From Eunapius fragilis (taxonomy: Eukaryota; Porifera; Demospongiae; Spongillida; Spongillidae): 64,000 nucleotides of DNA. The translations under genes and the position numbers were made by a program. How positions within the stretch are numbered: the stretch's first letter is position 1; each line of letters starts with the position of its first letter. The notes beneath the pieces were generated by a model that made no database searches, was not told the DNA's origin, and was given only the letters and a program-made list of their open reading frames with translations. This document shows positions 14,053 through 64,000 of the stretch, piece after piece. The stretch is from NCBI GenBank assembly GCA_963681505.1, contig OY811972.1, forward strand, positions 17,182,173 to 17,246,172, written 5' to 3'.

Positions 14053-14252
14053 NNNNNNNNNNNNNNNNNNNNNNNNNNNNNNNNNNNNNNNNNNNNNNNN
14101 NNNNNNNNNNNNNNNNNNNNNNNNNNNNNNNNNNNNNNNNNNNNNNNNNNNNNNNNNNNNNNNNNNNNNNNNNNNNNNNNNNNNNNNNNNNNNNNNNNNN
14201 NNNNNNNNNNNNNNNNNNNNNNNNNNNNNNNNNNNNNNNNNNNNNNNNNNNN
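14053..14252. other. Assembly gap (200 N)
   Basis: Exactly 200 N. The sequence immediately right of the gap repeats the sequence that begins at 10505, so the gap probably joins overlapping contigs rather than marking missing DNA. Confidence 0.97.
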
Positions 14253-14730
14253 GGATTTGAAGGCAATTGGTTGTGTAAAAAGAGGTCTTATCAGAAAGGA
14301 AAATGTACTAGTCCCATATTTAGCACATTTCTAGAGCATGTGTTGTTTGTGTGCTAAATATAGGACCATTACATTTTCCCTTCTGATATGACCTTGTTTC
14401 CTTGCTTTTTACATCACCAATTGCCTTCAAATCCTATATACCACCAACTTTCTCGTAGGAATGTTTTTAGTTAGTTGCATATAGTTCTGCACAATACACA
14501 CATCCATGGGAAGTAATACTTAAAGCACCATTAGTTGAATGTCGATGTCTCCAACATCCTCGTGATCTTCATCTGACATTGCTGTGGTGTCACCTGTTTG
14601 GATCGCTGTTCATTACGTCATTTCAAAATTACATTTCACTTTAAAAACTTACATACTGATTCCTTAACCACTCTGTAGTGATAAGTTATGCCGGTGAATG
14701 GCTACGCCAAATATGCAATGCACATGTGTG

Positions 14731-14784
<54 letters not shown>

Positions 14785-17031: not shown

Positions 17032-17063
<32 letters not shown>

Positions 17064-39648: not shown

Positions 39649-42600
39649 CTTCCTATGGAAAGACTTGGTACCAGTGCACTGATCTGGTAGCTTCTGTTCT
39701 CCATTCATTATGTTACAGTTTACGGATGGGAAGCTCTGTGAACGAGGGGTGTGGTCTCATCAGAGGGGCACCGCCCACACCGATACCCACATACCAGCAA
39801 TACCCTGAGGCAACGCTTATGCCCCAGCAGACAGGCGAGGTGGAGGGGAGTGTTCCCCTCCCTGTCTTGAATATTCACCCCCCGGGGGTCCGCTGACATC
39901 AAGACATGAGCATTTTCACATCTGTTGGCCGTGATGGCCTTGTGGAGGGCTGTGTGCCCATCCCTGGGGGACTGGTACCTCAGGAGAGCTGGATGGGGAG
40001 GATGAAAGTCAGGTGGACAATGAAAGCCACGCCCTTCATTGTAAAGCCACGCCCTTCACTATTAAATTATTACTACTGGGCAAGTAACATGAATTTAAAC
40101 TTTTAGTAGGATGTTCCAAGGGTGGGGCAAAAATAGGTGTGGCTTCATGGCACTGTGTCTATGTGTAGCTACCCCAGATAAGCATCCCGTGAGGTGAGAT
40201 AATACCCTCACCTCACCCTCATCCCGTGAGGTGAGATAATACCCTCACCTCACCCTCATTAGGGCAATTCTAGACAGCACATAGCATACCTACACTCACC
40301 CACACCTACACTGACCACACCCACACCTACACTGACCACACCCACTCACTGGCTTGCACTGTGATGTGAGGCTCATCTCCCTCGGTGTCTTCCATGATGC
40401 TCTGTATGGGGCTAAGGCGTGGCCTCGTATCCAGGACGGAATCCAAGGAAGTGATGGACCCCATGAGGTCATCATTTCTGGTCCCCAGGCCATCATCATT
40501 CTGAAGGGTATCATCAAGACTGGTCATACTGCCGGTATAGTCTGACTGATGTAGGGTGCCCAGACTGCTCAAGCTACCAGTGGGGTCAATGTCTGATGTA
40601 TCAAGGCCAGACATACTTCTGGTCCCCAGACTGCTGTTGGGGTCATCACCAGTGGTGTCCAGTTGGGTGCCCAGGCCATTGGCACTGGGTAACGTGTTGT
40701 CATTTTACAGTCCTGATGAGATTTATGGATTGCTATCCCCTCCCCCTAAGCCACTCCCCCTAAGCCACTCCCCCTAAGCCCCATGACCTTCTAGGAAACA
40801 CCAATGCCCACAGAATGATCACACCCTCCACGTTACCTTGGAAACGAGTTGATGATGATGTCATGTTTAGCTTTCTTGAGCTCCTGTACCATAAAGGTGA
40901 GGACATCTGAGCTCTTCATCTGACTGGCCAACATTAGCAGACTCTCACCAGAGGCCAGGAAGAGGTTAAAGTCACAAGGACCCTGTATAAAGTTTTCATG
41001 GTTACCAATATATTTAACCATAATTTGTGATACAAGATTTTGCTCTTCACAGTGAAGGCACTAAGGGTTAACTATCTGCCTAAGCACTAAGGGGTTAAAT
41101 ATCCTCCCAAGCACTAAGGGGTTAAATATCCTCCCAAGTACTTAAGTGGTTAACTACCCAGGCACTTGACAAAGAAGTTAACTATCAGCTCTGAAAGCAC
41201 TAAGAGGCTAACTATCCTCCCATGCACTAAGGGGTTAACTATCCTCCCATGCACTAAGGGGTTAACTATCCTTCCATGCACTAAGGGGTTAACTATCCTA
41301 CCATGCACTAAGGGGTTAACTATCCCCCCATGCACTAAGGGGTTAACTATCCTTCCATGCACTAAGGGGTTAACTATCCTATCAGGCACTAAGGGGTTAA
41401 CTAACCTTCCACACCCTCTTGAACTCGCTCAGTGCCTTCTTAACCCTGAGAGCTCTGACCAGGTCTTTGAGGTGGCCCTTACGTGTGGTCTCCAAGAGAT
41501 GCTGCACTCCACTGTACTCCAGGCAGTGCACAAAGAGGCCATCACTTCCCGGGACAGTGGTACTGGCACCCACCTCAAGGAGCAGTCTGGGGAAGGAAGG
41601 ATAAACATGGTACAGTGTTTCCATAGCAACATAGAAACAGTTTGTCACCATAACAAAGTACACAGGTGCCCATCCCATCCCATGACATCACCTAACGACC
41701 TCCCCATGGCCATTGGAGGCGGCCAGTTGAAGGGGTGTGGCCCCTGAGGGTGTACGAGCGTCAACATCAACCAGACGTTCATTGGAATCTCCATCAGTAA
41801 GGGCCAAGAGGTACCTAGGGAACCATGACAACCACTGACACCATGGCAATGACAACCATTAGCACCTCCCAACTCTCCACCCCCGCCTTGCGTCCTCCTC
41901 CCCAGTCCATTACCTCACCACCTCCAGGTGACCGCCTCGTGATGCCTGGTGAAGGGGTGTGGTCAGAGACCCTTCATGGGCAATGACCGCACCCCCATAC
42001 TGTGGAGGAAACTTTGTCGTTGGCTAGTGCCATGGCAACAATGAGCCACACCCACCTGATGAAGCAACTTGACAACTTCCAAGTGACCCAGCCCAGCTGC
42101 CAGTAGAAGAGGCCAGTCTCCATTCCTATTCTGAAAGTGAAGGATATATATGGAGCAAACTACATGCAGATGAATATCACCTCTCGCAGCAGTACATGAT
42201 CATGTGACCACCCCGTGACAATCATGTGACCACCCCATGACAATCATGTGACCACCCCATGGCAATCATGTGACCACCTCATGACAATCATGTGACCACC
42301 TCATGACAATCATGCGACCACCCCATGACAATCATGTGACCACCTCACACGACTACCTCATGCTGTCAGCTGTGATGGTACTGTGGACAAGTTTTTAGTG
42401 TCCAGGGTGGTTTACAAACCTCCAGAGTGGTTATAAGCAGAAGGCCAACTTATGTTACATCACAGATGTTTGTTAAACCAGGCCACACCAGATATTAAAG
42501 CACATGGTACTGGTCAGCTTTTTTCTAAATGACCCCAACGTTTGTTAGAAAATAACTAACCACTATGCAGGTAGGATCATCCCCGTACTCCCATACCCAT

Positions 42601-45600
42601 GCTCTCATACCCCCATACTCCCGTACTCCTACATGTATGCTCCCATACCCCATATTCCCATACCTTATGCTCCCATACCCCATATTCCCATACCCTATGC
42701 TCCCATACCCCATACTCCCATACTTGCATACTCCCATGCTTCAATGGTGAACCATGTAGTGCAATCGCATCCACTGGATCACATGACCTGTCACATGACA
42801 CCTTACCACTGGGTTCACATTATCTCCGCTCTCCAACACTTCCATCAGTCTGTCCTTTGACCCCCTCATGGCTGTGTCAAACAGCAATGGCTGCACTATC
42901 GTCTTCTGTCTCTTCTCAAAGGCTTCCCTCAAGATGGCCAGAATCCTGTCATTACGGCTGTTCTCAGCTAGGCCGATGGCCGCCTGAAGACCGACCAATC
43001 CCAGCTTGGGGGTGGGGCAGTTGAGGATAGCCTCCACACACTCCACATGTCCATTCCACACAGCGTAGTGGAGAGGTAACCAACACTGGTTGTCTCTGAT
43101 GGAGGGGTGGGCTCCAGCACTGGGGAGGAGGGAGTGGGGGAGGGGGAGGAGGGAGATTGACATCATACGACATATTGTAGCCAGTGTGTTGAATGGAGCA
43201 CATGTACAAAGGTCGTTTTCACAAACAATTCAATTATGCCCTAAATAAATATATACCATCATGTCACGATGTACAGGAAGGATAGAGGTCACATGACAGG
43301 AAGGTCACATGACAGGAAGGTCACATGACAGGGGGAGGTGGTCATACCTGATGATGGCAGTCAGACACTCGGTATGTCCCATCTCTGCAGCTATGCACAC
43401 GGCTGTCTTGAAGGTGTGTTCACTGCCCCCAGCTAGCTGAGCTGCTCCTATGCTGTTACTGAGGTCAAATATCTGACGACAAACAGTAGCCATATATGGT
43501 CATGTTTGCAACACATGTCGCCACGGTAACATGTGCAGGTGCCCCACCCCTTTACCCATCCAATGGTGGGAGGGTATATGATTGCCAAGGTAACTGACCT
43601 TGATCTGCTTGTAGTTAAGAGGACATGGTGACCTAGCTATGAGCTGCCTGACCAGGTCCACCTGGTTATGGGTCACTGCCACCATGAGGAGGGTCATACC
43701 ATCACTGTTGACCATACACAGATCTGAGATGTTGAGATGGTATACATTGAGTGTGCCCTGGAGAGGGAAAGAAGGGGGAAGAGGAAAGGAATGGGGAGGA
43801 GGAAAGGAAGGGGGAAGAGGAAAGGAATGGGGAGGAGGAAAGGAAGGGGGAAGAGGAAAGGAATGGGGAGGAGGAAAGGAAGGGGGGAGGAAAGGAATGG
43901 GGAGGAGGAAAGGAATGGAGGAGGTAGAAAGGAAGGGAAAGTGAAGTAGGAGAGAAATAAGGCAGGGGTGGATTGGGGAGGGAGGGTCTCCGGAGAGAGG
44001 AGGGAGAGGGAAAGGGGAGAGGGGATGGAGAAGACAAAGATAAATCATGCCTCTCCAAATAGTGCACACCGTACATTCTTGGCCTCTTCTGACAGTCTTC
44101 TGGCCCTATCAGTGCGGTGGTTATCAAGCACCTGGGCACACTCCAACATCTGGTGCTTCCTGGCCACGATGAGGGGGTCAAGTTGGAACCTGTCCTCACA
44201 ACCACTGTCTGCACCCCTGCGGAGTAGTGCACTAGGGAGGGGGAGGAGGGGAGGGGGAGGAGCATATTTAGCACCTGGTTTGACACAGTACTTCCTCCCA
44301 AGGTCTCCTCTACCAATGCTACCCCCCCTCCCCCATGTTGTAGCATAGCTCCAAGATGGTTACCCCTTACCTGATGACACCAAGATGGTTACCCCTTACC
44401 TGATGACACCAGGATGGTTACCCCTTACCCGATGACACCAAGATGGCTACCCCTTACCTGATGACACCAGGATGGCTACCCCTTACCTGATGACACCAGG
44501 ATGGCTACCCCTTACCTGATGACACCAAGATGGCTACCCCTTACCTGATGACACCAAGATGGTTACCCCTTACCCGATGACACCAGGATGGTTACCCCTT
44601 ACCTGATGACACCACGATGGTTACCCCTTACCTGATGACACCAAGATGGTTACCCCTTACCTGATGACACCAAGATGGTTACCCCTTACCTGATGACACC
44701 AAGATGGCTACCCCTTACCCGATGACACCAAGATGGCTACCCCTTACCCGATGACACCAGGATGGCTACCCCTTACCTGATGACACCAAGATGGCTACCC
44801 CTTACCTGATGACACCAAGATGGCTACCCCTTACCTGATGACACCAGGATGGCTACCCCTTACCTGATGACACCAAGATGGCTACCCCTTACCCAATGAC
44901 ACCAAGATGGCTACCCCTTACCTGATGACACCAAGATGGCTACCCCTTACCTGATGAAACCAAGATGGTTACCCCTTACCTGATGACACCAAGATGGCTA
45001 CCCCTTACCTGATGACACCAGGATGGCTACCCCTTACCTGATGACACCAAGATGGTTACCCCTTACCTGATGACACCAAGATGGTTACCCCTTACCTGAT
45101 GACACCAAGATGGCTACCCCTTACCTGATGACACCAAGATGGCTACCCCTTACCCGATGACACCAAGATGGCTACCCCTTACCTGATGACACCAAGATGG
45201 CTACCCCTTACCTGATGACACCAGGATGGCTACCCCTTACCCGATGACACCAAGATGGCTACCCCTTACCTGATGACACCAAGATGGCTACCCCTTACCT
45301 GATGACACCAAGATGGCTACCCCTTACCTGATGACACCAAGATGGCTACCCCTTACCTGATGACACCAAGATGGCTACCCCTTACCCGATGACACCAAGA
45401 TGGCTACCCCTTACCTGATGACACCAAGATGGCTACCCCTTACCTGATGACACCAAGATGGCTACCCCTTACCTGATGACACCAAGATGGCTACCCCTTA
45501 CCCGATGACACCAAGATGGCTACCCCTTACCTGATGACACCAAGATGGCTACCCCTTACCTGATGACACCAAGATGGCTACCCCTTACCCGATGACACCA

Positions 45601-47378
45601 GGATGACTACCCCTTACCTGATGACACCAAGATGACTACCCCTTACCCGATGACACCAAGATGGCTACCCCTTACCTGATGACACCAGGATGGCTACCCC
45701 TTACCTGATGACACCAAGATGACTACCCCTTACCTGATGACACCAAGATGGCTACCCCTTACCTGATGACACCAAGATGGCTACCCCTTACCCGATGACA
45801 CCAGGATGACTACCCCTTACCTGATGACACCAAGATGACTACCCCTTACCCGATGACACCAAGATGGCTACCCCTTACCTGATGACACCAGGATGGCTAC
45901 CCCTTACCTGATGACACCAGGATGGCTACCCCTTACCTGATGACACCAAGATGGCTACCCCTTACCCAATGACACCAAGATGGCTACCCCTTACCTGATG
46001 ACACCAAGATGGCTACCCCTTACCTGATGAAACCAAGATGGTTACCCCTTACCTGATGACACCAAGATGGCTACCCCTTACCTGATGACACCAGGATGGC
46101 TACCCCTTACCTGATGACACCAAGATGGTTACCCCTTACCTGATGACACCAAGATGGTTACCCCTTACCTGATGACACCAAGATGGCTACCCCTTACCTG
46201 ATGACACCAAGATGGCTACCCCTTACCCGATGACACCAAGATGGCTACCCCTTACCTGATGACACCAAGATGGCTACCCCTTACCTGATGACACCAGGAT
46301 GGCTACCCCTTACCCGATGACACCAAGATGGCTACCCCTTACCTGATGACACCAAGATGGCTACCCCTTACCTGATGACACCAAGATGGCTACCCCTTAC
46401 CTGATGACACCAAGATGGCTACCCCTTACCTGATGACACCAAGATGGCTACCCCTTACCCGATGACACCAAGATGGCTACCCCTTACCTGATGACACCAA
46501 GATGGCTACCCCTTACCTGATGACACCAAGATGGCTACCCCTTACCCGATGACACCAGGATGACTACCCCTTACCCGATGACACCAGGATGACTACCCCT
46601 TACCCGATGACACCAGGATGGCTACCCCTTACCCGATGACACCAAGATGGCTACCCCTTACCTGATGACACCAAGATGGCTACCCCTTACCTGATGACAC
46701 CAAGATGGCTACCCCTTACCTGATGACACCAAGATGGCTACCCCTTACCTGATGACACCAAGATGGCTACCCCTTACCTGATGACACCAAGATGGCTACC
46801 CCTTACCCGATGACACCAGGATGACTACCCCTTACCTGATGACACCAAGATGACTACCCCTTACCCGATGACACCAAGATGGCTACCCCTTACCTGATGA
46901 CACCAGGATGGCTACCCCTTACCTGATGACACCAAGATGACTACCCCTTACCTGATGACACCAAGATGGCTACCCCTTACCTGATGACACCAAGATGGCT
47001 ACCCCTTACCCGATGACACCAGGATGACTACCCCTTACCTGATGACACCAAGATGACTACCCCTTACCCGATGACACCAAGATGGCTACCCCTTACCTGA
47101 TGACACCAGGATGGCTACCCCTTACCTGATGACACCAAGATGACTACCCCTTACCTGATGACACCAAGATGGCTACCCCTTACCTGATGACACCAGGATG
47201 GTTGTGCTTTGCTGCAAAGTGGAGAGGTGTCCTCAACTGTTCAACATCACAGGCATTAACATCTGCACCAAACACACACACCATCACCTGAGGTGGGGAG
47301 TGAGGTAGGTGTGGTCAGTGTGAGGTGGTCAATACACCCACTAGCATGTGGGCGGAGCATATGGGGGTAGTTATGACA

Positions 47379-47414
<36 letters not shown>

Positions 47415-50103
47415 ATCAGCTATTTCATATAACATTTGCAGTTCAAACCGATCACATGACATTGTCACATGACATGCAGAAACCTCTAATGACAGCATAC
47501 GGCACTGTCCATCACATTACATCATCCTGCGCCATCCCAGAATGATGCACTCAACATAACATAAACGATCTCAAAGTGTACCAAGACAAGGTTTACTGAC
47601 TGAAAAGGGAGAATAAAACAGAAGACAAGGTTTACTGACTGAAGAGGAAGAATGAAACAGAAGACAAGGTTTACTGACAAGGTTTACTGACTGAAGAGGA
47701 AGAATGAAACAGAAGACAAGGTTTACTGACTGAAAAGGGAGAATGAAACAGAAGACAAGGTTTACTGACTGAAAAGGAAGAATGAAACAGAAGACAAGGT
47801 TTACTGACTGAAAAGGGAGAATGAAACAGAAGACAAGGTTTACTGACTGAAGAGGAAGAATGAAACAGAAGACAAGGTTTACTGACTGAAAAGGGAGAAT
47901 GAAACAGAAGACAAGGTTTACTGACTGAAAAGGAAGAATGAAACAGAAGACAAGGTTTACTGACTGAAGAGGAAGAATGAAACAGAAGACAAGGTTTACT
48001 GACTGAAAAGGGAGAATGAAACAGAAGACAAGGTTTACTGACTGAAAAGGGAGAATGAAACAGAAGACAAGGTTTACTGACTGAAGAGGAAGAATGAAAC
48101 AGAAGACAAGGTTTACAGGCTGAAAAGGGAACAGACCTATTCAAACTGCACATTGTAATGCTGTGTTCATTACTCCCATTCAGTCACAAGCTTGGTGTTT
48201 TTTTAAAAGCACACCCCCTGCTTTCATCACTTTGTTCCCACACAAACCAGAAGAATCCCAATCCATTAGGTAGTACTCCTTATATGTGGTGGTATCTAGT
48301 GTTAACATCACACACACATCACCACATACATCACCACACACATCGCCACACTATCCCACAAAAGTTGCCGTGACAACATGGGTCCCCAGACCTCTATCAA
48401 GTTCTCATCTCCCAGCTGTGCGGCCAAGCAGAGAGGTGTTAGCCCTTTGGTGTTACGGGAGTCAATGTTGGCCTTGTAGGTGTGTACCAGGAGGAAGAGG
48501 AGTGGGAGGGACACCAGACCCTGTCTGACCGCCACATGTATCAGCAGGTCTCCATTGACGTTCTTCTCACTGCTCACGTCAAATGAATTGTTCTACCAAA
48601 TGAGAAAATGGAGGGGCCATGGAGGGGAGGAACAGGAGGGGGAGGGGCCATGAAGGGGGATGGGCCATGGAGGGGGAGGGGCCATGGAGGGGGAGGAGCA
48701 GGAGGGGGGGGGGCCATGGTGGGGAGGAACAGGAGGGGGAGGGGCCATGGTGGGGAGGAACAGGAGGGGGAGGGGCCATGGAGGGGGAGGAACAGGAGGG
48801 GGAGGGGGAGATGAAGGGAAGCTATTAATATCCATAAAAGGTGAAGGGGGGGGGGGGGGGGGCACAAGCCCTCCTCCCCGGGCCATACCTGTAGCTCCAT
48901 CACCAGGGTATAGAACATCTCTGGCTGTGTAGCATGGAGGAATATCTCATCTCTCAGTGAAGTAGAGATGGGAACATATTGCTTGTAACCTGCAGCAGGG
49001 TGGGAGGGAGTATACAATGGTGCACAATAGTGGGAGGGAGTATACAATGGTGCACAATAGTGGGAGGGAGTATACAATGGTGCACAATAGTGGGAGGGAG
49101 TATACAATGGTGCACAATAGTGGGAGGGAGTATACAGACGTCTGACCTTTGACTCCACTGTCCCTCCTGGCAGACGGTGGAATGGACTGTGGACTGAACG
49201 CACGCATGAGATGCCCCAGGGTCACGGTACCAGCCTCCTTAAAGACATGATCCTCCTTCAGCACCTTGCGCTCCAACATCCCCTCCAGACACTTATGGCT
49301 GCCAGAGGCTAGCAACAGCTTACACAGCTCATAGCAGCTGTCCACAAGGTTAGCATCGTGGTAGATGGAGGCCATCCTCTGTGTGTCAGGCCACAGGGAC
49401 TCAAACTTCACGGTGGGTTCTCTGTGATGGTAGGTGTTGTATGACAGCTGGGGACCCCAGAGGGTGTGGCATATCAGCACACAGTGCTTCTTGGCCTGAG
49501 AGGTGAGGGGCGTGTCTGCGGTGGGCGGGGTCAAAGGTGAGGTGTAGTCATGTGATTAAATTGTCGGCCAATTGTGCTCACTGATATTCCCCTCTCCACC
49601 TCCTCCCCAGCCCTCCCTTCCTCCTCCCCAGCCCTCCCTTCCTCCTCCCCAGCCCTCCCTTCCTCCTCCCCTGTCCCTCTCATCCTCCTCCCCATCCCTA
49701 GATCCAATCACACACCTTGGCATATGGCTGGTACCTCTTCCCCAGACCTGACACTTGATGTTACACTTGATGTTGGGTCGCTTGTCTCATGTGATAGGGC
49801 AGGTGAGGGCGGAGCCAGGGGGCGTGTCAGACCACCGATAGTGGCAGGCAGAGATGAAGCCTTTGTATCGATGAAAAAGATTACATCATCATTACATCAT
49901 CACAACAACACATCTCACAGCTTGGATATGTTAAGAGCATGCTTGTGTAGGTGGTACACACACATACGTCTTAGGTAAACTAACCTTGGGATGAGTAAAC
50001 ATATCCAACATGAGAGGGAGGGGAGGGGGAGGGAGGAGAGGGAAAGGGATTATTTATCAATACATCTTAACCTCAGACCAGCCCATGTTCATGATTTGTT
50101 ATT

Positions 50104-50159
<56 letters not shown>

Positions 50160-51613
50160 ACAGGGTCTGTGCCTACGGATGTCAGCTCCACCACACCAGC
50201 CATTCCTCCCTCCCTCAGCTGCTCCACGCTGAAGGGACGACCAAACACCTCACGGTACACGCCCCTCGGCACGCAGTAGACCACGCCCCCACAGGCCCCA
50301 CACAGGGAGCACACCCTCATTGAGTACAGTGGAAGGTTCAGGCTCTTGACCAGCCTCTGGTGGAACTGCTCCAGACCAAACAGGCTAGGTTCCATAGAAC
50401 CAAGCGGCTTCACCAGCAAGTACCGCCCCCCACTGGGGAGGGCGTGGCCATTCACGAGTGGGGGACACTCCCACACCCTCAGACTGCGGTAATCGACCAG
50501 CCTCTTCCTGTAGCCCTGCAGCTGTGCGTTGAAGGCTTCCCTCTCCCTCCTGGCTTCACCGCACACGGACTGAAGGAGGTGTGGCATCACCTCGTGCCCC
50601 GCCCACGAGGCGTACTGAAGCACAACCTCCAACACCTCCGCGTGGGTGGAGAGCCTGTTGATTGAGTGGGCGTGGTCTCCAAACATGGACACGTTGTGCA
50701 GGGGAGCCCCAGATATGCCTAGCACCGCCTCTTTCAGCCCCTCCACAGAGGTCATCTTCCCCAGACACTCCACCAACGTCTGCTTGAGGGACGCAAACCT
50801 TTGGCTGATCCCGGCCATGTCGGCTCCGCCCACCCAGTGAGGGGAGGTGGACGAGGAGCAATGCTGGCCCCGCCTACTTGGGGGGGTTCCCTGGGAAGGG
50901 GTGGGGCAGCCGTGACTGAAGATCTGTTCTATGGAGCACCACTGGCAGGGTTCACTGGGGGGCGTGGTCCTGACGGGGGAGGGTACTTCAGGGGGCGTGG
51001 TGGATATGCCTGCAGAGAGGTGCATCAGTGATGAGGTGAGTGTGATGAGGTGAGTGTGATGAGGTGAGTGTGATTATAAAATATGTATATGTGAAGGGAT
51101 TGAGGGAGAAGTGTGTGTCTGTATGTGTGTGTGTGTGTGCTTATGCAGGTGCATTCAGCAAACGTTGCACTGTGAAAACGAGTGTACCTAATGGGTCCAA
51201 GTTCCCGCTTGAAGCCCCTCCCCCTCCGTCCCCTTTGTTTTTCCACTTTCCTCCCTTCTTGATGTACGCATCTGAAAAGAGGAGGAATGAGTACTCCGCC
51301 CCCTCTCTCGTATATACACCTCACCTCTCAGCGTCCCGCCCAAATCCCGCCACAGCTTCTCCTTGCTGAACTCTTCGACGAAGGTCTGGAACACGCCATC
51401 ATCACCGTTGCCTAGCAGCGCATTGATCAGGGCCTGCACGCGGCCACCCGGGGGTCTCTCTTCGCGACAGCTGTCGTTAAGGAGGTCGAACTCTATCAAA
51501 TTGGCCTCAAACAAGCATCCCGCCAGTGTGGTTGGATCGGCGGTAGAGGATATGTGTCTGTAGTGCTCCCTGATGGTGTCGAACCCCGCTGGGTCGCTTT
51601 GCTTCATCGCCAT
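38502..51613 (-). CDS. Gene B: CARD-like / ankyrin-repeat / coiled-coil protein (1517 aa, 27 exons)
   Basis: Exons: 51613-51325, 51271-51188, 51009-50162, 49860-49735, 49495-49147, 48989-48889, 48592-48392, 47287-47184, 44216-44075, 43757-43599, 43472-43348, 43119-42807, 42130-42056, 41999-41914, 41814-41692, 41586-41406, 40982-40837, 40684-40350, 39988-39795, 39735-39649, 39370-39336, 39279-39236, 39202-39128, 39062-38976, 38859-38785, 38733-38653, 38590-38502. All borders are GT-AG, phases agree throughout, and the total is 4554 nt. Residues about 12-96 look like a CARD (LFEANLIEFDLLNDSC, VQALINALL, VFQTFVEEF). Residues 125-407 are an unrecognised helical region with a CSLCGAC cysteine cluster. 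About 13 ankyrin repeats span 600-1327 (for example RTPLHFAAKHNHPGVIR, TALHKAI, NTPLHLACLLGH). The C-terminus is a series of short coiled-coil exons. CARD-ankyrin proteins act as cytosolic signalling adaptors; that role is inferred. Micro-exons at 39370-39236 are the least certain. Confidence 0.88.
38890..38975. repeat. Tandem ~21-bp repeat carrying four CArG-type boxes
   Basis: CCATAAATGG (38898-38907) and CCATATATGG (38918-38927, 38939-38948, 38961-38970) recur every 20-22 bp in a gene B intron; the last one abuts the 5' splice site of exon 39062-38976. CC(A/T)6GG is the SRF/MADS consensus. Binding is untested, and a simple tandem duplication explains the spacing. Confidence 0.75.
39375..39648. 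repeat. CACATG-rich repeat and (CA)n in gene B intron
   Basis: About 39375-39545 repeats ATGGAACACATGGTCACATG units. It is followed by CACACAACACA and a (CA)n tract (about 39597-39645) that runs directly into the donor GTATGTGTG of exon 39735-39649. Confidence 0.85.
40190..40260. repeat. Two-copy 36-bp repeat with internal GTGAGGTGA
   Basis: CATCCCGTGAGGTGAGATAA followed by TACCCTCACCTCACCCT is present twice in tandem. GTGAGGTGAG and CTCACCTCAC also make each unit self-complementary. It lies in the intron between exons 40684-40350 and 39988-39795. Confidence 0.75.
41045..41405. repeat. 27-bp minisatellite touching a 5' splice site
   Basis: Units of 27 bp (CATGCACTAAGGGGTTAACT then ATCCTCC) repeat about 12 times. 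The last unit joins the donor of exon 41586-41406, whose sense sequence GTTAGTTAACCCC resembles the array's ATAGTTAACCCC. Confidence 0.9.
42186..42352. repeat. 22-bp repeat (ATCATGTGACCACC) in gene B intron
   Basis: About eight tandem 21-22-bp units with ATCATGTGACCACCCCATGA lie between exons 43119-42807 and 42130-42056. A second tandem block of CCCATACCCCATATTCCCAT units follows at about 42595-42730. Confidence 0.85.
43758..44035. repeat. Polypurine tract, pyrimidine-rich on the gene strand
   Basis: About 280 bp is almost pure GA on the plus strand (GAGGAAAGGAAGGGGGAA and GGAATGGGGA units). On the coding strand it is an extended CT tract directly before the acceptor of exon 43757-43599. Similar expanded pyrimidine tracts precede exons at 48592, 55906 and 56940. 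Confidence 0.85.
44217..47183. repeat. ~98-copy 29-bp minisatellite made of the intron's own 5' splice site
   Basis: Tandem 29-bp units fill nearly the whole intron between gene B exons 47287-47184 and 44216-44075 (array about 44346-47200). On the coding strand each unit reads TGGTGTCATCAG|GTAAGGGG followed by TAGCCATCT. The first unit starts inside the upstream exon (CCTGGTGTCATCAG), so the exon-intron border itself was copied. Variants are CGG|GTAAGG (TTACCCG on plus) and TTGG|GTAAGG. A block of 37 units (1073 bp) is repeated: the rare TTACCCAATGAC marker occurs at 44889 and 45962, and GATGAAACC at 44953 and 46026. The paralogous intron in gene C is only 229 bp without an array. Confidence 0.96.
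47586..48122. repeat. 39-bp minisatellite in gene B intron
   Basis: About 13 units of 39 bp (GAATGAAACAGAAGACAAGG then TTTACTGACTGAAGAGGAA) lie in the intron between exons 48592-48392 and 47287-47184. Units alternate between AAAGGGA and GAGGAA endings. A 160-codon frame across it is a repeat by-product. Confidence 0.93.
48600..48860. repeat. GGAGGGGCCATGG purine-rich repeat before exon 48592
   Basis: GGAGGGGGAGGGGCCATGG and GGAGGAACAGGAGGGG units repeat upstream of the acceptor of exon 48592-48392, and a poly-G run follows near 48847. On the coding strand it forms a long pyrimidine-rich tract. Confidence 0.85.
48998..49135. repeat. 30-bp minisatellite in gene B intron
   Basis: About five units of 30 bp (GTGGGAGGGAGTATACAATG then GTGCACAATA) lie immediately upstream of the acceptor for exon 48989-48889. 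Confidence 0.92.
50105..50158. repeat. (CA)n running into the 5' splice site of exon 51009-50162
   Basis: About 26 CA dinucleotides on plus. On the coding strand the donor GTAAG continues directly into (TG)n. Confidence 0.95.
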
Positions 51614-52349
<736 letters not shown>

Positions 52350-52355
52350 TTTATT
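52350..52355 (-). terminator. Polyadenylation signal of gene C
   Basis: AATAAA on the minus strand, 21 nt past the TAG stop at 52377-52379. Confidence 0.55.
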
Positions 52356-52376
52356 GGACAGCACACACGTAGGCAG

Positions 52377-54000
52377 CTAGCTGTTCATTTTCTTCTTCAG
52401 TTCAGCCTTCAGTCTCTTCATCTCTTCATCAAACATTGACATAGTAAAATCTTCCTTACCTAAGGTGATGGATGGTATGGGGGACCAGGGGTGGATGGTA
52501 TGGGGACCAGGGGTGGATGGTGTGGGGACCAGGGGTGGATGGTATGGGGACCAGGGGTGGATGGTGTGGGGACCAGGGGTGGATGGTATGGGGACCAGGG
52601 GTAGATGGTGTGGGGACCAGGGGTAGATGGTGTGGGGACCAGGGGTGGATGGCATGGTGACAAGGAGGTGGACAGCATGGGGACCAGGGACAGATGGCAT
52701 GGGGACCAGTTTCAATTAACCTACATACCTTGTACGTCGGTAACCTGTGGAGGCGTGGCCTCAGCAGAACGGTGGTGAGGAGGTGTGGCCTCAGCAGAAT
52801 GGTGATGCGGAGGCGTGGCCTCTGCCGAGTGGTGTGGGGGCGTGGCCTCGGCAGATAGATGTGGTGATGAGGCTTCAGCTTGTCTTGTGGTGGGAGGGGT
52901 GGGAAGACTGGGGAGGAGCAATGGGAAAAGAAAACCAGTGAAAATCAGTCCTACCCAGTCCTCCTCCCCAGTCCTCCCCAGGATATATTGCTTACCCTAA
53001 CTTGGATGTAGGTTCACTTGGAGCACTGTTGCTATGGAGATAAATATGTTGGTGGATTTTAGCCATTATCCAAATCATGCCCACCTCATAGCTAGCTTCC
53101 TTGTTTTCTCCATCTGCACATACAAACACACACACAGACATCACACACACACACACACAAACACAAACACACACATACACACACATACACACACATATAT
53201 ATACACACACACACACACACAATACACAAAAAAACATTGAAAGGTTCACATGATGTCACATGATCCAGACAGACCTGTTTCCTGAAGTGCCTCTGGTGAG
53301 ATGTTGCACACATCTCTGGAAGATTACCGTCCTTGTTCCGTATGTCTGCTCTCACACAGGGGAAGCTCTGTGCAGTCACATGATGCATCACATGACTATC
53401 ACATGACTATCACATACCAGCAAGGTCTTCACAAGGTCCTTCTTTCCACGTCTACAGGCTACATGGAGGGCAGTGTTACCCTCCAAATCCTGCATGTTGG
53501 CCAGCCTGGGGTCTGATGTGAGGAGGACAACCATGTTGTTCCCCCTGTCCCCCATGACAGCTCTGTGGAGTGCCGTCTGCCCGTCACACATGTTCTGCCT
53601 GCGGAGGATGACTGTGGGAGAGGGGAGGAGGGGGAGGGGGAGGGGAGGAGGGAGGAGGGGAAAGATGATTTAAATGTCCACTACTTCACATCACTAACAT
53701 GACTGGATCCATTCACCAGTCCTCTCTCCTTGGTCCTCTTGTAGGGTTTCATCCCTAGAGGGCATCTGGTTGTCATGGCAATTTCCAAGGTAACCACCAC
53801 CTACATTTTTTTAGTGACAGACTTAGTAAGCCCCGCCTCTTCCTCTTCCTCACATATGGAGTTACTGTCCATGCTGAGGACATGGAATGGAAACCGCAGT
53901 ATGGAACACAGACAGAATAGGACCCCCTCCACACACACACACACACACACACATACCCAACACACACACACACACATACACACACACATACACACACACA

Positions 54001-54047
<47 letters not shown>

Positions 54048-57000
54048 CAGCACAGATATCTTGCTAGTTAGCAGCTTGTCCCCAGTGGTTGTCTTAGCCT
54101 CCTGTACCAAGAAGGTAACCAACTCTGTGGGGGCGTGTTGAGCTGCAAGCATCAGAACACTGGAACCAGACCGTGTGTACAGGTTAAAGTCACTGGGACC
54201 CTATGTGAGGGAGATGGTGGGTAATAGAACCCTGGTCCCCAGTCCTATCAGAGTAGTTCCAGTCCCCAACAACTGTACACTGGTCCCCAGTCCCAACAGC
54301 TGTACACTGGTCCCCAGTCCCAACGCTGTACACTGGTCCCCAGACCCAACAGCACACTCCAACAGCTGTACACTGACCATCCATATCTGTTTGAAGTCTT
54401 CCACAGTGATGTTTGACTTGAGGGCACGCGACAGACTGCCAAAGTGAAGCCTTCTGTGTGAGTCCAAGGTATGCTGGACCCCTGCGTACTGGGACCCCAC
54501 AAACTGTCCCTTGCTGTCAGGTAAGGAGCTTAGTGCTCCATGGGCCAGTAGAAGTCTGTATGGGTAGGGGTGTGGTCGTGGGTTAGGGGTGTGACCATAA
54601 GTGAGGGGTGTGGCCGTGGGTGAGGGGTGGAGCCATGGGTGAGGGGTATGACCATGGGTGAGGGGTGGAGCCATGGGTGAGGGGTGGAGCCATGGGTGAG
54701 GGGTATGGCCATGGGTGAGGGATGCGGCCATGGGTGAGGGGTGGAGCCATGGGTGGGGTGTGGCCATGGGTGAGGGGTGTGGCCATGGGTGAAGGGGTGA
54801 GGGATATGGCTTACTCCACAATATTTGCATGTCCACTGCGTGCAGCCAACTCAAGAGCTGTGGCTCCTGTGGTGTCCCTACGGTTGATGTCCTTAAATTC
54901 AGTGACCTTGTTAAGATGAGGACGGGGGTAGAACTGAAGGAGATACCTAGGGGGAGAAGGAGGGAGGGGAGGAGGGAGGAGAGAGGGATGTGGATCAGGA
55001 CTCTACTATACTTCCCCTCCCTCCCACCCCTCCTCCCCTCCTTCCCCCATATTACTCACTCCACTATTTTGATGTGTCCTTTCTCTGATGCACGATGAAG
55101 AGGGGTGGAGCTTGAATTGGCCATGTAGGTGACCACACCCCCAAACTGGGTATACCACACAGACATGAGGTCAAAGTATACACACCCACACACACATATA
55201 CACACACCCACACACACACATACACACACACCACATTGCTAACCTGGTGTAGGTGTTGGATGATTTCAACATGACCTGCTTCAGCAGCCAATAGAACTGG
55301 CCACTCTCCTTTGACATTCTAAGGATAGTTGTTATTATTGGTTATTAAAATTAGGATGCCAGCTTATAAGAGGTTAGGTTAAATAACCCCTACTTACAAG
55401 AGGTTAAATGACCCCAGCTTAGAAGAGGTTAAAGGACCTCAAGTTTACAAGAGGTTAAAGGACCCCAAGTTTACAAGAGGTTAAAGGACCCCAAGTTTAC
55501 AAGAGGTTAAAGGACTCAGCTTACAAGAGGTTAAAGGACCAGCTTACAAGAGGTTAAAGGACCCCAGCTTACAAGAGGTTAAAGGACCCCAGCTTACAAG
55601 AGGATTGACATCATCGCCCTGTTCAACACCTCCACCAGACGATCCTTGTCTCCACGCACACACGTCTCAAAGAGGACTGGCTGCACCAGGTTGGTCTGTC
55701 TTGTGTTGCTGGCTTCCGTCAGTACAGCCACCATCTCTTCATGTTGGGCACCCTGGGCCAGCCCTATGGCCAGGTTTAGTCCCGTCAGCCCACGGTAGTT
55801 TGGTGTGCTGAGGATGGCTTTCACACAGTCCAAAAACCCGTTCCATGTGGCGTAATGAAGGGGCAACCATAAGTTGAGGTCCTTGATGGCAACATTGGCC
55901 TTCTTTCTGAGGGAGAGAGAGAGGGAGAGAGAGAGAGGGAGGGAGGGAGGAGGAGAAAGGGAGAGGGAGGGAGGAGGAGAAAGGGAGGGGGAGGGAGGAG
56001 GAAGGGAGGGGGAGGGAGGAGGAAGGGAGGGGGGAGGGAGAAGGGAAAGTGAATGATGCTGCATATCAGAGGTGGCAGTCTGTGTTGGAAGGGGTGTGGC
56101 CTGTGTTTGGAAGGGGTGTGGTCTGTGTTGGAAGGGGTGTGGTCTGTGTTGGAAGGGATGTGATCTGTGTTGGAAGGGGTGTGGTCTGTGTTGGAAGGGG
56201 TGTGGGCTGTGTAAAGGTGACAATGGTGAGGTGTGGGTGACTAGAAGGAATAGCTTATCCCCGGCCACTGCTCCAATGGTGGGTGTGGTCTCACGGTGAC
56301 CAATGGCCTTACAAGATGAGTTCATTGAGACACTCCACATGGCCTCTTTCAGCAGCCATCAACAGTGCTGTCTTCTGGTCACTACCACCCTGTGTGGATA
56401 AGAATAATGTGGAACATCTGACTGACTCCCCTCCTCTCCCCTTCCCTCAGCCCCTCCCTCTTCTCCTCCCTCCCTCTCTCTCCTCCTCCCTCCCTCTCTC
56501 TCCTCCTCCCTCCCCTCCCCTTTACTACAGATACGCTAACCATGCACATGGGGGTAGGGGTAAGGGGTGGGGGGGGGAGGAGGAGGATGTACCATGTAGT
56601 TGATGGGACAGCTAGGTTGCAGCAGTAGCTGCCTGACCAGGTAGTGGTGGCCACCCAGCACAGCCACCATCAGGAGGGTGAGGCCATCTTCGTTGATCTC
56701 ACACATATCAGACGGGGTAAGCTTGGACACTATCAGGCTTCCCTAGACGGTTGGAGGGGAGGGGTGAGTAAGTGGTGCCCAGTCCCCAGGCCTTTACCGT
56801 CTCGGCCTCCTTGGATAGCCGCTGTGTCCTCTCCTTGCGATGGTTCTCCAACACCTGCACACACTCCAGGTGGCCATTGTTCCTGGCCAGTATGAGAGGG
56901 TCACATTTGGACAGGTCCTCACAACCACTGTCGGCCCCCCCTGCGGAGGAGTATACTGGGGAGGAGGGAGGGAGGAAGGGGGAGGAGGGAGGGAGGAGGG

Positions 57001-58533: not shown

Positions 58534-58596
58534 CACATGCCCCACCTGCTTGGCTGAGCTGAGCACAGCCCACTCGTTAATATAATTACATAACAT

Positions 58597-58897
58597 TGGT
58601 CATTGTTCATGAATGTCAACACGGTAGGGAAACTCCACGACTTTTGAAAAACATGATCACGTGGCACTAACCGTATCCAACAGCCATCACGTGACCATGC
58701 AATATACATGCCCCTACACGTACATGCTATGCATGCTTGTTTTGGAATCATTTCATTACTATGGTGACCAGCAAATTCATGTGTGTGCTACCCTATGACC
58801 TCTGTGACCTTGGTCAACCCATGTGTGCAGTATGAATATGAGCAGTGAGGGGAAGATGATCAAAGGGGAAACTTTCCAAACACACAGCAGCAAGCAT
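58597..58897. promoter_or_regulatory. Short intergenic region upstream of gene C
   Basis: About 300 bp lie between the gene D stop (58898) and the gene C start. The region contains CACGTG-like motifs (TCACGTGGCA near 58649, CATCACGTGACC near 58686). If gene C is independently transcribed its promoter must be here. No TATA element is evident. Confidence 0.4.
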
Positions 58898-59804
58898 TCA
58901 TTTCTTGTAGCTCTTGACAAGCTGACACGCCTCTCCTCTGCGCTCCAAGGCGAGCACTTCCCTTGGTAACGTCCCCTTCCTCCCTCCTCCCTTCCCCTCC
59001 AGCAACACTGCTACCCTGGAAAGAGAGTGCAAGTTGGTAATTATGGTCTGGGGACTAGAGTACACAGAGAGAATGATGGTCTGGGGACTAGAGCTGCACT
59101 TACTGTGGACCAAGGGCTGCGACTACTTCTCCTCCCCAGCCATGAGGAACTGACCGGCACCTCGGTCCCCTCCCACTGTCACCAGCACCAGCACACCCTA
59201 GTCCAAGAGCATACTCACGACATCATAGTAAGATGCTGTGCCACGCCCACCTTAGCAGTAAGCTCATTGGCCAGAACGTTCATAAACTCATTGTCACCAT
59301 CATCTCTGGGAACAGGTGATCACATGACCACAGCTATCACACACTCCCACACACACACACACACACACCCTAACACCTCACCTGTGTATAGTAGCCACGG
59401 GGTCAACAGGGTCGTTGCTATGGAGATGTTGAAAGGCCAACAGCTGGGCCAGGTCCCTGAGCTGGTTACGCACAACCTTAGCTAGCTGTCTCCCTTCCTT
59501 CATCACCTTGTCCACACTCTCCACATGGCTCTCACCCCCACACTAAGATAGACGAGGCTTCGTGACAACCCACACACACATCCACTCACACACACCCACC
59601 CACTCACATGCCCACAACACATCCACCCACCCACATTCACATGTCCACCCACCCACACACACATCCACCCACACACCTTAGTAGCTTAGTGAGGGATCGC
59701 TCAATTGTTATGGCTCTCTCCATGTACGATAACACCCGGTCCCCAGCCAGGTAGTAGACCAACACTGACCCCTTCTTGGGCTCGGAATGAACAAGCTTGA
59801 TACA
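58898..59804 (-). CDS. Gene D: 3' end of an unrecognised gene (partial)
   Basis: Candidate exons: 59804-59677, 59542-59382, 59305-59251, 59235-59219 (17 nt), 59015-58898 ending in TGA. The last four agree in phase; the junction between the first two needs an alternative donor (GTGGGT, about 4 nt downstream) to stay in frame. The segments read CIKLVHSEPKKGSVLVYYLA, then ESHVESVDKVMKEGRQLAKV with a helical continuation, DDGDNEFMNVLANELTAK, and a basic tail ending LVKSYKK. I do not recognise the family; the composition suggests an alpha-helical protein. The 5' part is lost in the assembly gap. It lies in the same orientation just upstream of gene C. Confidence 0.55.
59340..59370. repeat. (CA)n in gene D intron
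   Basis: A short (CA)n tract just downstream of the donor GTGAGG of exon 59542-59382. A longer CCCACACACATCCACC-type repeat occupies the next upstream intron (about 59565-59676). Confidence 0.8.
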
Positions 59805-59829
59805 CTGCAATGAATGATACCCTCACATT

Positions 59830-60029
59830 NNNNNNNNNNNNNNNNNNNNNNNNNNNNNNNNNNNNNNNNNNNNNNNNNNNNNNNNNNNNNNNNNNNNNNN
59901 NNNNNNNNNNNNNNNNNNNNNNNNNNNNNNNNNNNNNNNNNNNNNNNNNNNNNNNNNNNNNNNNNNNNNNNNNNNNNNNNNNNNNNNNNNNNNNNNNNNN
60001 NNNNNNNNNNNNNNNNNNNNNNNNNNNNN
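59830..60029. other. Assembly gap (200 N)
   Basis: Exactly 200 N. What follows repeats an internal part of gene B, so the join to 60030 is doubtful. Confidence 0.97.
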
Positions 60030-63000
60030 TGTGTTGAATGGAGCACATGTACAAAGGTCGTTTTCACAAACAATTCAATTATGCCCTAAATAAATATATA
60101 CCATCATGTCACGATGTACAGGAAGGATAGAGGTCACATGACAGGAAGGTCACATGACAGGAAGGTCACATGACAGGGGGAGGTGGTCATACCTGATGAT
60201 GGCAGTCAGACACTCGGTATGTCCCATCTCTGCAGCTATGCACACGGCTGTCTTGAAGGTGTGTTCACTGCCCCCAGCTAGCTGAGCTGCTCCTATGCTG
60301 TTACTGAGGTCAAATATCTGACGACAAACAGTAGCCATATATGGTCATGTTTGCAACACATGTCGCCACGGTAACATGTGCAGGTGCCCCACCCCTTTAC
60401 CCATCCAATGGTGGGAGGGTATATGATTGCCAAGGTAACTGACCTTGATCTGCTTGTAGTTAAGAGGACATGGTGACCTAGCTATGAGCTGCCTGACCAG
60501 GTCCACCTGGTTATGGGTCACTGCCACCATGAGGAGGGTCATACCATCACTGTTGACCATACACAGATCTGAGATGTTGAGATGGTATACATTGAGTGTG
60601 CCCTGGAGAGGGAAAGAAGGGGGAAGAGGAAAGGAATGGGGAGGAGGAAAGGAAGGGGGAAGAGGAAAGGAATGGGGAGGAGGAAAGGAAGGGGGAAGAG
60701 GAAAGGAATGGGGAGGAGGAAAGGAAGGGGGGAGGAAAGGAATGGGGAGGAGGAAAGGAATGGAGGAGGTAGAAAGGAAGGGAAAGTGAAGTAGGAGAGA
60801 AATAAGGCAGGGGTGGATTGGGGAGGGAGGGTCTCCGGAGAGAGGAGGGAGAGGGAAAGGGGAGAGGGGATGGAGAAGACAAAGATAAATCATGCCTCTC
60901 CAAATAGTGCACACCGTACATTCTTGGCCTCTTCTGACAGTCTTCTGGCCCTATCAGTGCGGTGGTTATCAAGCACCTGGGCACACTCCAACATCTGGTG
61001 CTTCCTGGCCACGATGAGGGGGTCAAGTTGGAACCTGTCCTCACAACCACTGTCTGCACCCCTGCGGAGTAGTGCACTAGGGAGGGGGAGGAGGGGAGGG
61101 GGAGGAGCATATTTAGCACCTGGTTTGACACAGTACTTCCTCCCAAGGTCTCCTCTACCAATGCTACCCCCCCTCCCCCATGTTGTAGCATAGCTCCAAG
61201 ATGGTTACCCCTTACCTGATGACACCAAGATGGTTACCCCTTACCTGATGACACCAGGATGGTTACCCCTTACCCGATGACACCAAGATGGCTACCCCTT
61301 ACCTGATGACACCAGGATGGCTACCCCTTACCTGATGACACCAGGATGGCTACCCCTTACCTGATGACACCAAGATGGCTACCCCTTACCTGATGACACC
61401 AAGATGGTTACCCCTTACCCGATGACACCAGGATGGTTACCCCTTACCTGATGACACCACGATGGTTACCCCTTACCTGATGACACCAAGATGGTTACCC
61501 CTTACCTGATGACACCAAGATGGTTACCCCTTACCTGATGACACCAAGATGGCTACCCCTTACCCGATGACACCAAGATGGCTACCCCTTACCCGATGAC
61601 ACCAGGATGGCTACCCCTTACCTGATGACACCAAGATGGCTACCCCTTACCTGATGACACCAAGATGGCTACCCCTTACCTGATGACACCAGGATGGCTA
61701 CCCCTTACCTGATGACACCAAGATGGCTACCCCTTACCCAATGACACCAAGATGGCTACCCCTTACCTGATGACACCAAGATGGCTACCCCTTACCTGAT
61801 GAAACCAAGATGGTTACCCCTTACCTGATGACACCAAGATGGCTACCCCTTACCTGATGACACCAGGATGGCTACCCCTTACCTGATGACACCAAGATGG
61901 TTACCCCTTACCTGATGACACCAAGATGGTTACCCCTTACCTGATGACACCAAGATGGCTACCCCTTACCTGATGACACCAAGATGGCTACCCCTTACCC
62001 GATGACACCAAGATGGCTACCCCTTACCTGATGACACCAAGATGGCTACCCCTTACCTGATGACACCAGGATGGCTACCCCTTACCCGATGACACCAAGA
62101 TGGCTACCCCTTACCTGATGACACCAAGATGGCTACCCCTTACCTGATGACACCAAGATGGCTACCCCTTACCTGATGACACCAAGATGGCTACCCCTTA
62201 CCTGATGACACCAAGATGGCTACCCCTTACCCGATGACACCAAGATGGCTACCCCTTACCTGATGACACCAAGATGGCTACCCCTTACCTGATGACACCA
62301 AGATGGCTACCCCTTACCTGATGACACCAAGATGGCTACCCCTTACCCGATGACACCAAGATGGCTACCCCTTACCTGATGACACCAAGATGGCTACCCC
62401 TTACCTGATGACACCAAGATGGCTACCCCTTACCCGATGACACCAGGATGACTACCCCTTACCTGATGACACCAAGATGACTACCCCTTACCCGATGACA
62501 CCAAGATGGCTACCCCTTACCTGATGACACCAGGATGGCTACCCCTTACCTGATGACACCAAGATGACTACCCCTTACCTGATGACACCAAGATGGCTAC
62601 CCCTTACCTGATGACACCAAGATGGCTACCCCTTACCCGATGACACCAGGATGACTACCCCTTACCTGATGACACCAAGATGACTACCCCTTACCCGATG
62701 ACACCAAGATGGCTACCCCTTACCTGATGACACCAGGATGGCTACCCCTTACCTGATGACACCAGGATGGCTACCCCTTACCTGATGACACCAAGATGGC
62801 TACCCCTTACCCAATGACACCAAGATGGCTACCCCTTACCTGATGACACCAAGATGGCTACCCCTTACCTGATGAAACCAAGATGGTTACCCCTTACCTG
62901 ATGACACCAAGATGGCTACCCCTTACCTGATGACACCAGGATGGCTACCCCTTACCTGATGACACCAAGATGGTTACCCCTTACCTGATGACACCAAGAT

Positions 63001-64000
63001 GGTTACCCCTTACCTGATGACACCAAGATGGCTACCCCTTACCTGATGACACCAAGATGGCTACCCCTTACCCGATGACACCAAGATGGCTACCCCTTAC
63101 CTGATGACACCAAGATGGCTACCCCTTACCTGATGACACCAGGATGGCTACCCCTTACCCGATGACACCAAGATGGCTACCCCTTACCTGATGACACCAA
63201 GATGGCTACCCCTTACCTGATGACACCAAGATGGCTACCCCTTACCTGATGACACCAAGATGGCTACCCCTTACCTGATGACACCAAGATGGCTACCCCT
63301 TACCCGATGACACCAAGATGGCTACCCCTTACCTGATGACACCAAGATGGCTACCCCTTACCTGATGACACCAAGATGGCTACCCCTTACCCGATGACAC
63401 CAGGATGACTACCCCTTACCCGATGACACCAGGATGACTACCCCTTACCCGATGACACCAGGATGGCTACCCCTTACCCGATGACACCAAGATGGCTACC
63501 CCTTACCTGATGACACCAAGATGGCTACCCCTTACCTGATGACACCAAGATGGCTACCCCTTACCTGATGACACCAAGATGGCTACCCCTTACCTGATGA
63601 CACCAAGATGGCTACCCCTTACCTGATGACACCAAGATGGCTACCCCTTACCCGATGACACCAGGATGACTACCCCTTACCTGATGACACCAAGATGACT
63701 ACCCCTTACCCGATGACACCAAGATGGCTACCCCTTACCTGATGACACCAGGATGGCTACCCCTTACCTGATGACACCAAGATGACTACCCCTTACCTGA
63801 TGACACCAAGATGGCTACCCCTTACCTGATGACACCAAGATGGCTACCCCTTACCCGATGACACCAGGATGACTACCCCTTACCTGATGACACCAAGATG
63901 ACTACCCCTTACCCGATGACACCAAGATGGCTACCCCTTACCTGATGACACCAGGATGGCTACCCCTTACCTGATGACACCAAGATGACTACCCCTTACC
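60030..64000. repeat. Copy of 43185-47155 (part of gene B and its 29-bp array)
   Basis: The whole segment matches 43185-47155 at a constant offset of 16845, with no difference at any marker checked. Checked points include rare array variants (TTACCCAATGAC at 61734, the GGATGACTACC cluster at 62446) and the last bases of the window. Fast-mutating minisatellite units would be expected to differ between true duplicates, so a redundant contig is the simplest explanation. Confidence 0.9.
60193..61061 (-). pseudogene. Duplicate of three gene B ankyrin exons
   Basis: Exons 60317-60193, 60602-60444 and 61061-60920 repeat gene B exons 11, 10 and 9 exactly, including flanking introns and splice sites. 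They are followed on the right by the 29-bp array to the window end. The other gene B exons are absent because the segment is cut by the gap on one side and the window on the other. Not counted as a separate gene, since it is probably an assembly duplicate. Confidence 0.8.

What the first reader, a model, noticed from the sequence alone, without database searches (positions are those of the whole stretch)
44217..47283. A splice donor amplified ~98 times: minisatellite whose unit spans the exon-intron border
Seen directly: the 29-bp unit (sense ..GTCATCAG|GTAAGGGG..) starts inside gene B exon 47287-47184 and continues through most of the next intron, so nearly every unit presents a near-consensus 5' splice site (CAG or CGG before GTAAGG). 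Use of any but the exon-proximal donor shifts the frame (29 is not a multiple of 3) or meets the TAA/TAG inside the unit. The cell must choose one donor among about 98, or make many dead-end isoforms. The array could titrate U1 snRNP, act as a length-variable expression dial, or be neutral. The equivalent intron in gene C has no array.
Basis: partly seen in the sequence, partly recalled or inferred. Interest (0 to 1): 0.82.

Follow-up and report, generated by a model that had tools for sequence, protein, structure and literature searches.

The report
Splice-donor repeat array in sponge gene
A short stretch covering the end of an exon and the start of the next intron is present 98 times in a row in a freshwater-sponge gene, so the splicing machinery meets 98 near-identical cut sites; it is most likely a repeat that happened to start there and is tolerated because the first site is used.

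Summary
On the minus strand, 98 full 29-bp units (47201-44360) begin 18 nt inside a 104-nt exon of an ankyrin-repeat gene and fill about 96% of the next 2,952-nt intron. All 98 keep GTAAGG (73 CAG|, 23 CGG|, 2 TGG|). Skipping the first donor meets TAA at once, so the other 97 give the same truncated product. The apparent second array at 61210-64000 is the same array: two contig ends overlap, unmerged, across a 200-N gap. Border-straddling donor arrays recur in the 297 kb examined: gene C, TIMELESS (two introns), a Rab gene. There too only the exon-nearest donor fits the protein. I found no convincing preference of repeats for donors; arrays cover 12% of predicted intron sequence, and borders are hit less often than intron interiors. 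Most likely: a neutral minisatellite seeded over a donor, tolerated because the 5'-most donor wins (inferred, no RNA seen). Closest known case: the human IFI6 donor minisatellite. U1 titration is unlikely; a length-dependent dial is untested. Deposited RNA-seq (ERR11641155) can decide.

The parts
44351..47201 (-). 29-bp minisatellite, 98 full units (47201-44360) plus a short stub; sense unit CCATCTTGGTGTCATCAG|GTAAGGGGTAG
47184..47287 (-). Exon (104 nt) of gene B whose last 18 nt are the exonic part of unit 1; encodes ..RTPLHFAAKHNHPGVI
   Evidence: ankyrin Pfam match over this part
47178..47186 (-). Exon-proximal 5' splice site CAG|GTAAGG (first of 98), the only one that keeps the frame
44232..47183 (-). 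Intron (2,952 nt); about 96% is array
44075..44231 (-). Next exon, acceptor CCCTAG|TGCACTACTCC; ALLRRGADSGCED..
39795..51613 (-). Gene B, hand-read exons of an ankyrin-repeat protein (further exons predicted down to 38645); N-terminus resembles Em0007g62a
55376..55603 (-). Gene C: 25-bp array (9.1 copies) beginning at CCTCTT|GTAAGC, a second donor-bearing border array
41058..41411 (-). Gene B, another intron: 27-bp array (13 copies) spanning AAG|GTTAGT; in the later copies the site reads GATAGT (donor lost)
59830..60029 (.). 200-N gap between two contigs whose ends overlap by 16.6 kb without being merged
60030..64000 (.). Redundant copy of 43185 onwards, including the apparent second 29-bp array from 61210

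Best explanation
A chance tandem duplication of 29 bp (18 nt exon + 11 nt intron) at an exon-intron border of an ankyrin-repeat gene grew, partly by block duplications, into 98 units. It is tolerated because the spliceosome pairs the exon with its nearest (5'-most) donor and discards the rest as intron. Use of any other donor keeps an in-frame TAA and gives dead-end RNA. Shown: anatomy, donors, frame, recurrence in other genes. Inferred: order of events, and use of the first donor (no RNA was available).
For: The unit starts in conserved coding sequence and gene C has the same intron without the array, so exon and intron are older than the array. The 13 unit types and a 22-unit run repeated 37 units further on show growth by block duplication. 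Downstream exons are open and homologous to gene C, which needs correct splicing at this border. Four similar arrays sit in gene C, TIMELESS (two) and a Rab gene. In the Rab and the 39-bp TIMELESS case the Pfam match of the hand-joined exons runs across the junction made with the first donor; in gene C the first donor gives the same residues at the border as the corresponding gene B junction, apart from one conservative change (hand comparison); the 32-bp TIMELESS case rests on the gene model. Arrays cover 22,194 of 184,332 predicted intron bases (12.0%), so border seeding is expected now and then. A 20-base donor window has a near copy within 80 bp (3 mismatches or fewer) at 5 of 179 donors, against 12 of 180, 9 of 177 and 10 of 177 at control intron positions. 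In human IFI6 two downstream repeat units serve as further donors and the 130-residue form predominates (passage in PMC4526556).
Against: No RNA data. All 98 donors keep GTAAGG, so decoy donors have not decayed. By the homemade matrix 72 of the other 97 donors score the same as the first, and by folding the first is no more accessible (rank 68 of 98), so the cause of a first-donor preference is not visible. The intron from the last donor would be 139 nt, a size that intron definition might favour. Donor-like 8-mers are doubled more often than matched 8-mers (14 loci for 211 occurrences against 1,148 for 81,250; 2 in 5,000 random sets as high); I put this down to purine-rich runs, but it is not excluded that part is a real preference. 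In gene C the gene finder itself chose the third donor.
Confidence: 0.7

Rival explanations
1. Expression dial: a length-dependent share of transcripts splices from internal donors, meets TAA and is degraded, so array length sets the output of the gene.
For: Every internal donor is unproductive in the same way; 72 of the other 97 donors score the same as the first by the homemade matrix; minisatellites are known to mutate in length (general knowledge).
Against: No RNA or population data; the only two array copies in hand are one assembled locus with equal length; the same architecture in TIMELESS and a Rab gene fits tolerance better than regulation.
Confidence: 0.15
2. Ratchet array: 73 of 98 units read AG|GT, so a unit can be acceptor and then donor. 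Splicing inside the array would shorten it and rebuild the same donor, and the intron would be removed in steps.
For: 73 of 98 units have CAG|GTAAGG with acceptor score 7.2-8.4 bits against a median of 6.9 for predicted acceptors; internal splicing would be silent by construction.
Against: By eye no clear branch site or strong pyrimidine tract; the acceptor matrix is noisy; 25 units (CGG/TGG) lack AG; the true acceptor scores 12.2 bits.
Confidence: 0.08
3. Gene B is decaying or the exon model is wrong, so the array lies in non-functional sequence.
For: Gene models are unsupervised and unsupported by RNA; the Ephydatia gene model ends near this exon.
Against: Predicted exons stay open on both sides of the array and match gene C and ankyrin profiles.
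Confidence: 0.05
4. Copy number is an assembly artefact.
For: The region is at a contig end, overlaps are unmerged, and the assembly has 802 gaps.
Against: Two contig ends carry the identical array, though perhaps from the same reads; mean HiFi read length (184.53 Gb / 18.74 million reads, about 9.8 kb) exceeds the 2.85-kb array.
Confidence: 0.02

Closest known systems
Human IFI6 (6-16, G1P3) minisatellite with multiple splice donors (Turri, Cuin and Porter 1995, known here from its title in reference lists and one citing passage; the paper itself is not held)
   Same: A minisatellite whose units offer splice donors at one exon border.
   Different: Recalled: the IFI6 unit is 12 bp (a multiple of 3), about 26 copies, so other donors give longer proteins. 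Here the unit is 29 bp, 98 copies, and every other donor gives an immediate stop. Sponge, not human; no RNA proof.
[quoted passage not shown] potato RdRp, PMC4974935, listing only)
   Same: Tandem duplication across an AG|GT motif multiplies splice sites.
   Different: There the duplication makes a new intron the size of the repeat; here the intron existed before (gene C has it) and was lengthened.
Recursive (ratchet) splice sites, recalled
   Same: AG|GT could serve as acceptor and then donor.
   Different: By eye no branch site or pyrimidine tract of note; no evidence of stepwise splicing.
CeRep25B minisatellite near alternative splicing regions in C. elegans (PMC4039745, abstract and section list only)
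   Same: An intronic minisatellite linked to splicing.
   Different: There the abstract speaks of intronic regulatory motifs, not of amplified donors at an exon border.

Membership tests
Splice-donor minisatellite (IFI6 type) | Tandem array straddles an exon-intron border | tested here: met
   18 nt of exon in unit 1
Splice-donor minisatellite (IFI6 type) | Units carry consensus donors | tested here: met
   GTAAGG in 98 of 98 units
Splice-donor minisatellite (IFI6 type) | More than one donor is used in mRNA | not testable with these tools
   no RNA data held
Splice-donor minisatellite (IFI6 type) | Unit length a multiple of 3, giving in-frame isoforms (recalled for IFI6) | tested here: not met
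   29 bp; TAA begins 1 nt past donor 1
Intron gained by tandem AGGT duplication | Intron absent before the duplication | tested here: not met
   the homologous intron in gene C has no such array
Recursive splice site | AG|GT junction | tested here: met
   73 of 98 units
Recursive splice site | Functional pyrimidine tract and branch site | tested here: inconclusive
   acceptor 7.2-8.4 bits against a predicted median of 6.9; branch site judged by eye only
Recursive splice site | Stepwise intermediates or lariats | not testable with these tools
   no RNA data

The most novel reading that the evidence does not exclude
Because 73 of 98 units are both acceptor-like and donor (AG|GT), the array is a self-shortening splicing substrate: splicing within it removes whole units and rebuilds the same donor. 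Array length then tunes how often the exon-proximal donor is finally joined, giving a hypervariable RNA-level rheostat of a kind that recurs at several genes of this sponge.
Probability: 0.08. Interest if true: 0.75.

Novelty: new variant of a known kind. Interest (0 to 1): 0.42.

Why it matters
How a spliceosome picks one donor among equals is usually studied with a few engineered sites (recalled). Here one gene offers 98 natural near-identical donors, and other genes in the same genome offer arrays of about 3 to 9 units. In each, exon-proximal and internal use should be distinguishable by sequence, and only one choice appears productive. If the first donor always wins, that is strong in vivo evidence for exon-proximal choice; if not, array length becomes a candidate expression dial.

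Tried and rejected
Donor preference of minisatellites. At first sight units with strong donors were in excess: at 10 bits or more 7 of 113 arrays, 0 reversed, 1.4 +/- 1.3 shuffled; at 8 bits 17, 8 and 9.4 +/- 3.1; at 6 bits 35, 29 and 31.1 +/- 4.1 (113 of 230 arrays, after dropping low-complexity units, scores under 50 and the window's satellite and first redundant stretch). Donor 8-mers (NAGGTRAG) were doubled within 46 bp at 14 loci for 211 occurrences, against 1 for 107 reversed and 2.0 for 91 scrambled; matched 8-mers gave 1,148 for 81,250, and 2 in 5,000 random sets of eight reached the donor rate. But 8 of the 14 loci are GAGGTGAG and 3 are AAGGTGAG, mostly in purine-rich runs; only gene B and TIMELESS are clear donors, and a third (C1 85534) is a predicted border inside a purine run. 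Donor-like units were not commoner on the sense strand (12 of 123 intronic arrays sense, 17 antisense, at 8 bits). I judge a preference unproven.

Donor/acceptor asymmetry. Near copies of the border window at 7 of 179 donors against 1 of 199 acceptors (4 mismatches or fewer, Fisher p 0.029); 5 against 1 at 3 or fewer (p 0.105). Introns under 120 bp and low-complexity windows were dropped first; windows 30 bp inside the predicted exon gave 7 of 179, a warning that some predicted exons lie in repeats; the fifth donor (C3 44020-46819) is doubtful. By TRF, of 97 arrays overlapping predicted introns, 6 reach over a predicted donor (one, C2b 27176, doubtful) and 2 over an acceptor. Suggestive only.

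Second array as an independent locus: rejected, contig overlap. Accessibility of the first donor by RNA folding: no privilege. Constraint on the donor block: variation is at 6 of 29 positions, none in positions 18-28, but there are too few independent changes to claim selection. C3 8758-8839 (GTAAGA, 16 bp) looked like one more case, but the gene model has no exon there on that strand. Exact 18-19-mers of the unit in viral and prokaryotic contigs: one stretch with one match each, taken as chance and not studied.

A genome-wide count of tandem CAGGTAAG pairs did not complete.

Full report
What is there. On the minus strand, the 29-bp unit CCATCTTGGTGTCATCAG|GTAAGGGGTAG occurs in 98 full copies from 47201 to 44360, with a short stub to 44351. 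The first 18 nt are the end of a 104-nt exon (47287-47184), and the array fills about 96% of the 2,952-nt intron that follows. The copies are of 13 types, vary at 6 of 29 positions, and keep GTAAGGGGTA in 98 of 98. The triplet before GT is CAG in 73, CGG in 23, TGG in 2. Mean pairwise difference is 4.6%. A run of 22 units recurs 37 units further on, so the array grew in blocks.

Which gene and organism. The best relative is Em0007g62a, 61% identity over 47% of the query; that the Em prefix means Ephydatia muelleri is recalled. The genome held has 218,937,333 bases in 24 contigs, C1 being 24,992,492. Eunapius fragilis odEunFrag1.1 is published as 218.91 Mb in 23 scaffolds, longest 24.99 Mb, with a 28.5-kb mitochondrial genome (first part of five of PMC12616128 read). 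The identification rests on these sizes.

Assembly. 43185-59829 repeats at 60030-76675 (extended coordinates) across a 200-N gap at 99.86%, with 2 substitutions and 20 short indels, all between 54008 and 59616; 43185-54007, with the array, is identical. This is a suffix-prefix overlap of two contigs, so the array from 61210 is the same array. 10505-14052 and 14253-17793 show the same pattern. Gene C as read from the first contig has a one-base difference in an exon at about 55624.

Consequence for splicing. After the exon the frame reads ATC AGG TAA: skipping donor 1 meets a stop 1 nt past it. So the choice is binary: donor 1, or one of 97 donors with the same truncated product. By the session's own matrix the donors score 10.4 bits (73), 8.7 (23) and 5.9 (2), against a median of 7.0 for predicted donors. 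The first donor is not stronger than 72 of its copies and not more accessible by folding (rank 68 of 98).

Not alone. In 297 kb (window, its extension, and three other stretches) I found other arrays that start at an exon border and repeat its donor: gene C (25 bp, 9 copies; CTT|GTAAGC in the first four, then GTAAAC in three and GTAAGT in a late one), a TIMELESS intron with 39-bp units (3 donors), a TIMELESS intron with 32-bp units (4 donors), and a Rab gene (GTGAGC in 4 of 6 units). The TIMELESS_C match and the Ras match (to 7 residues past the border) run across the hand-joined junction of the 39-bp and Rab cases; the gene C border is supported by the matching gene B junction; the exon before the 32-bp array rests on the gene model alone. 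In gene B another border array (41411-41058) keeps the donor GT only in the first copy. So 4 of 286 predicted introns, plus the Rab intron that the gene finder missed, carry live donor arrays. The gene finder put the gene C border at the third donor.

Preference for donors. Arrays cover 12.0% of predicted intron, 5.5% of exon and 4.4% of intergenic bases. Border windows are doubled less often than intron interiors: 5 of 179 donors against 12 of 180, 9 of 177 and 10 of 177 control positions, 7 of 179 windows inside exons, and 1 of 199 acceptors. Against this, donor-like words are in excess in repeats: 7 of 113 units at 10 bits against 0 reversed and 1.4 shuffled, and 14 doubled loci for 211 donor 8-mers, a rate reached by 2 of 5,000 random sets. 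Of these 14 loci 11 are GAGGTGAG or AAGGTGAG, mostly in purine-rich runs, and two are clear donors. Sense and antisense counts in intronic arrays do not favour sense (12 and 17 of 123). I read this as no convincing preference. Donor borders may tolerate arrays better than acceptor borders (7 of 179 against 1 of 199, p 0.029; 5 against 1, p 0.105), which would fit 5'-most donor choice, but the numbers are small and the models unproven.

Reading. The simplest account is a minisatellite seeded by chance over a donor in a genome rich in intronic minisatellites, and tolerated because the exon-nearest donor is used. Use of the first donor is inferred from intact downstream frames here and in the other genes, not observed. 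The closest precedent is human IFI6 (6-16): a citing paper says two downstream repeat units serve as splice donors, giving three mRNAs, and that the 130-residue form predominates (passage in PMC4526556). Searches for other donor-carrying minisatellites, for recursive splicing with tandem repeats and for sponge minisatellites showed me no second case in the titles and abstract starts listed (one search listed 20 of 471); I did not open most of these papers, and the library holds open-licence papers only.

Noticed in passing
14053-14252 and 59830-60029: 200-N gaps flanked by unmerged overlapping contig ends (3.5 kb and 16.6 kb): local false duplications of this assembly.
   Followed up: yes
L013 6900-6991 and 7732-7848: TIMELESS gene with two introns that begin with short arrays repeating the exon's donor (3 and 4 donors).
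   Followed up: yes
L018 400-524: Rab-type GTPase exon ending in AG|GTGAGC followed by a 21-23-bp unit, 6 copies, 4 with the donor intact.
   Followed up: partly
47583-48128: 39-bp array (about 12-14 units) in the preceding intron; units carry an acceptor-like CTCTTCAG or CTTTTCAG (9.2-9.7 bits; the exon's own acceptor scores 11.9), so the exon sits between acceptor-like and donor arrays.
   Followed up: partly
41058-41411: Array spanning another gene B exon border in which the later copies have lost the donor (GTTAGT to GATAGT).
   Followed up: partly
C2:17258828 onwards (just beyond the first contig's end): 30-bp array of about 114 copies starting where the first contig ends, possibly the cause of the contig break.
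   Followed up: no
1-10290: Satellite with 185/208-bp units, some with a 24-bp sub-duplication.
   Followed up: no
31096-34202: Gene on the minus strand with Death and NACHT domains (NLR-like); a 15-bp repeat (33600-33730) lies in a predicted exon.
   Followed up: partly
L012 6400-8600: Sequence resembling the TIMELESS C-terminal region of L013, with one exact copy of the donor 14-mer.
   Followed up: no
44351-47201: Many units read GCCATCTTGG, which resembles the YY1 binding motif as recalled; not counted, probably a by-product of the coding sequence.
   Followed up: no
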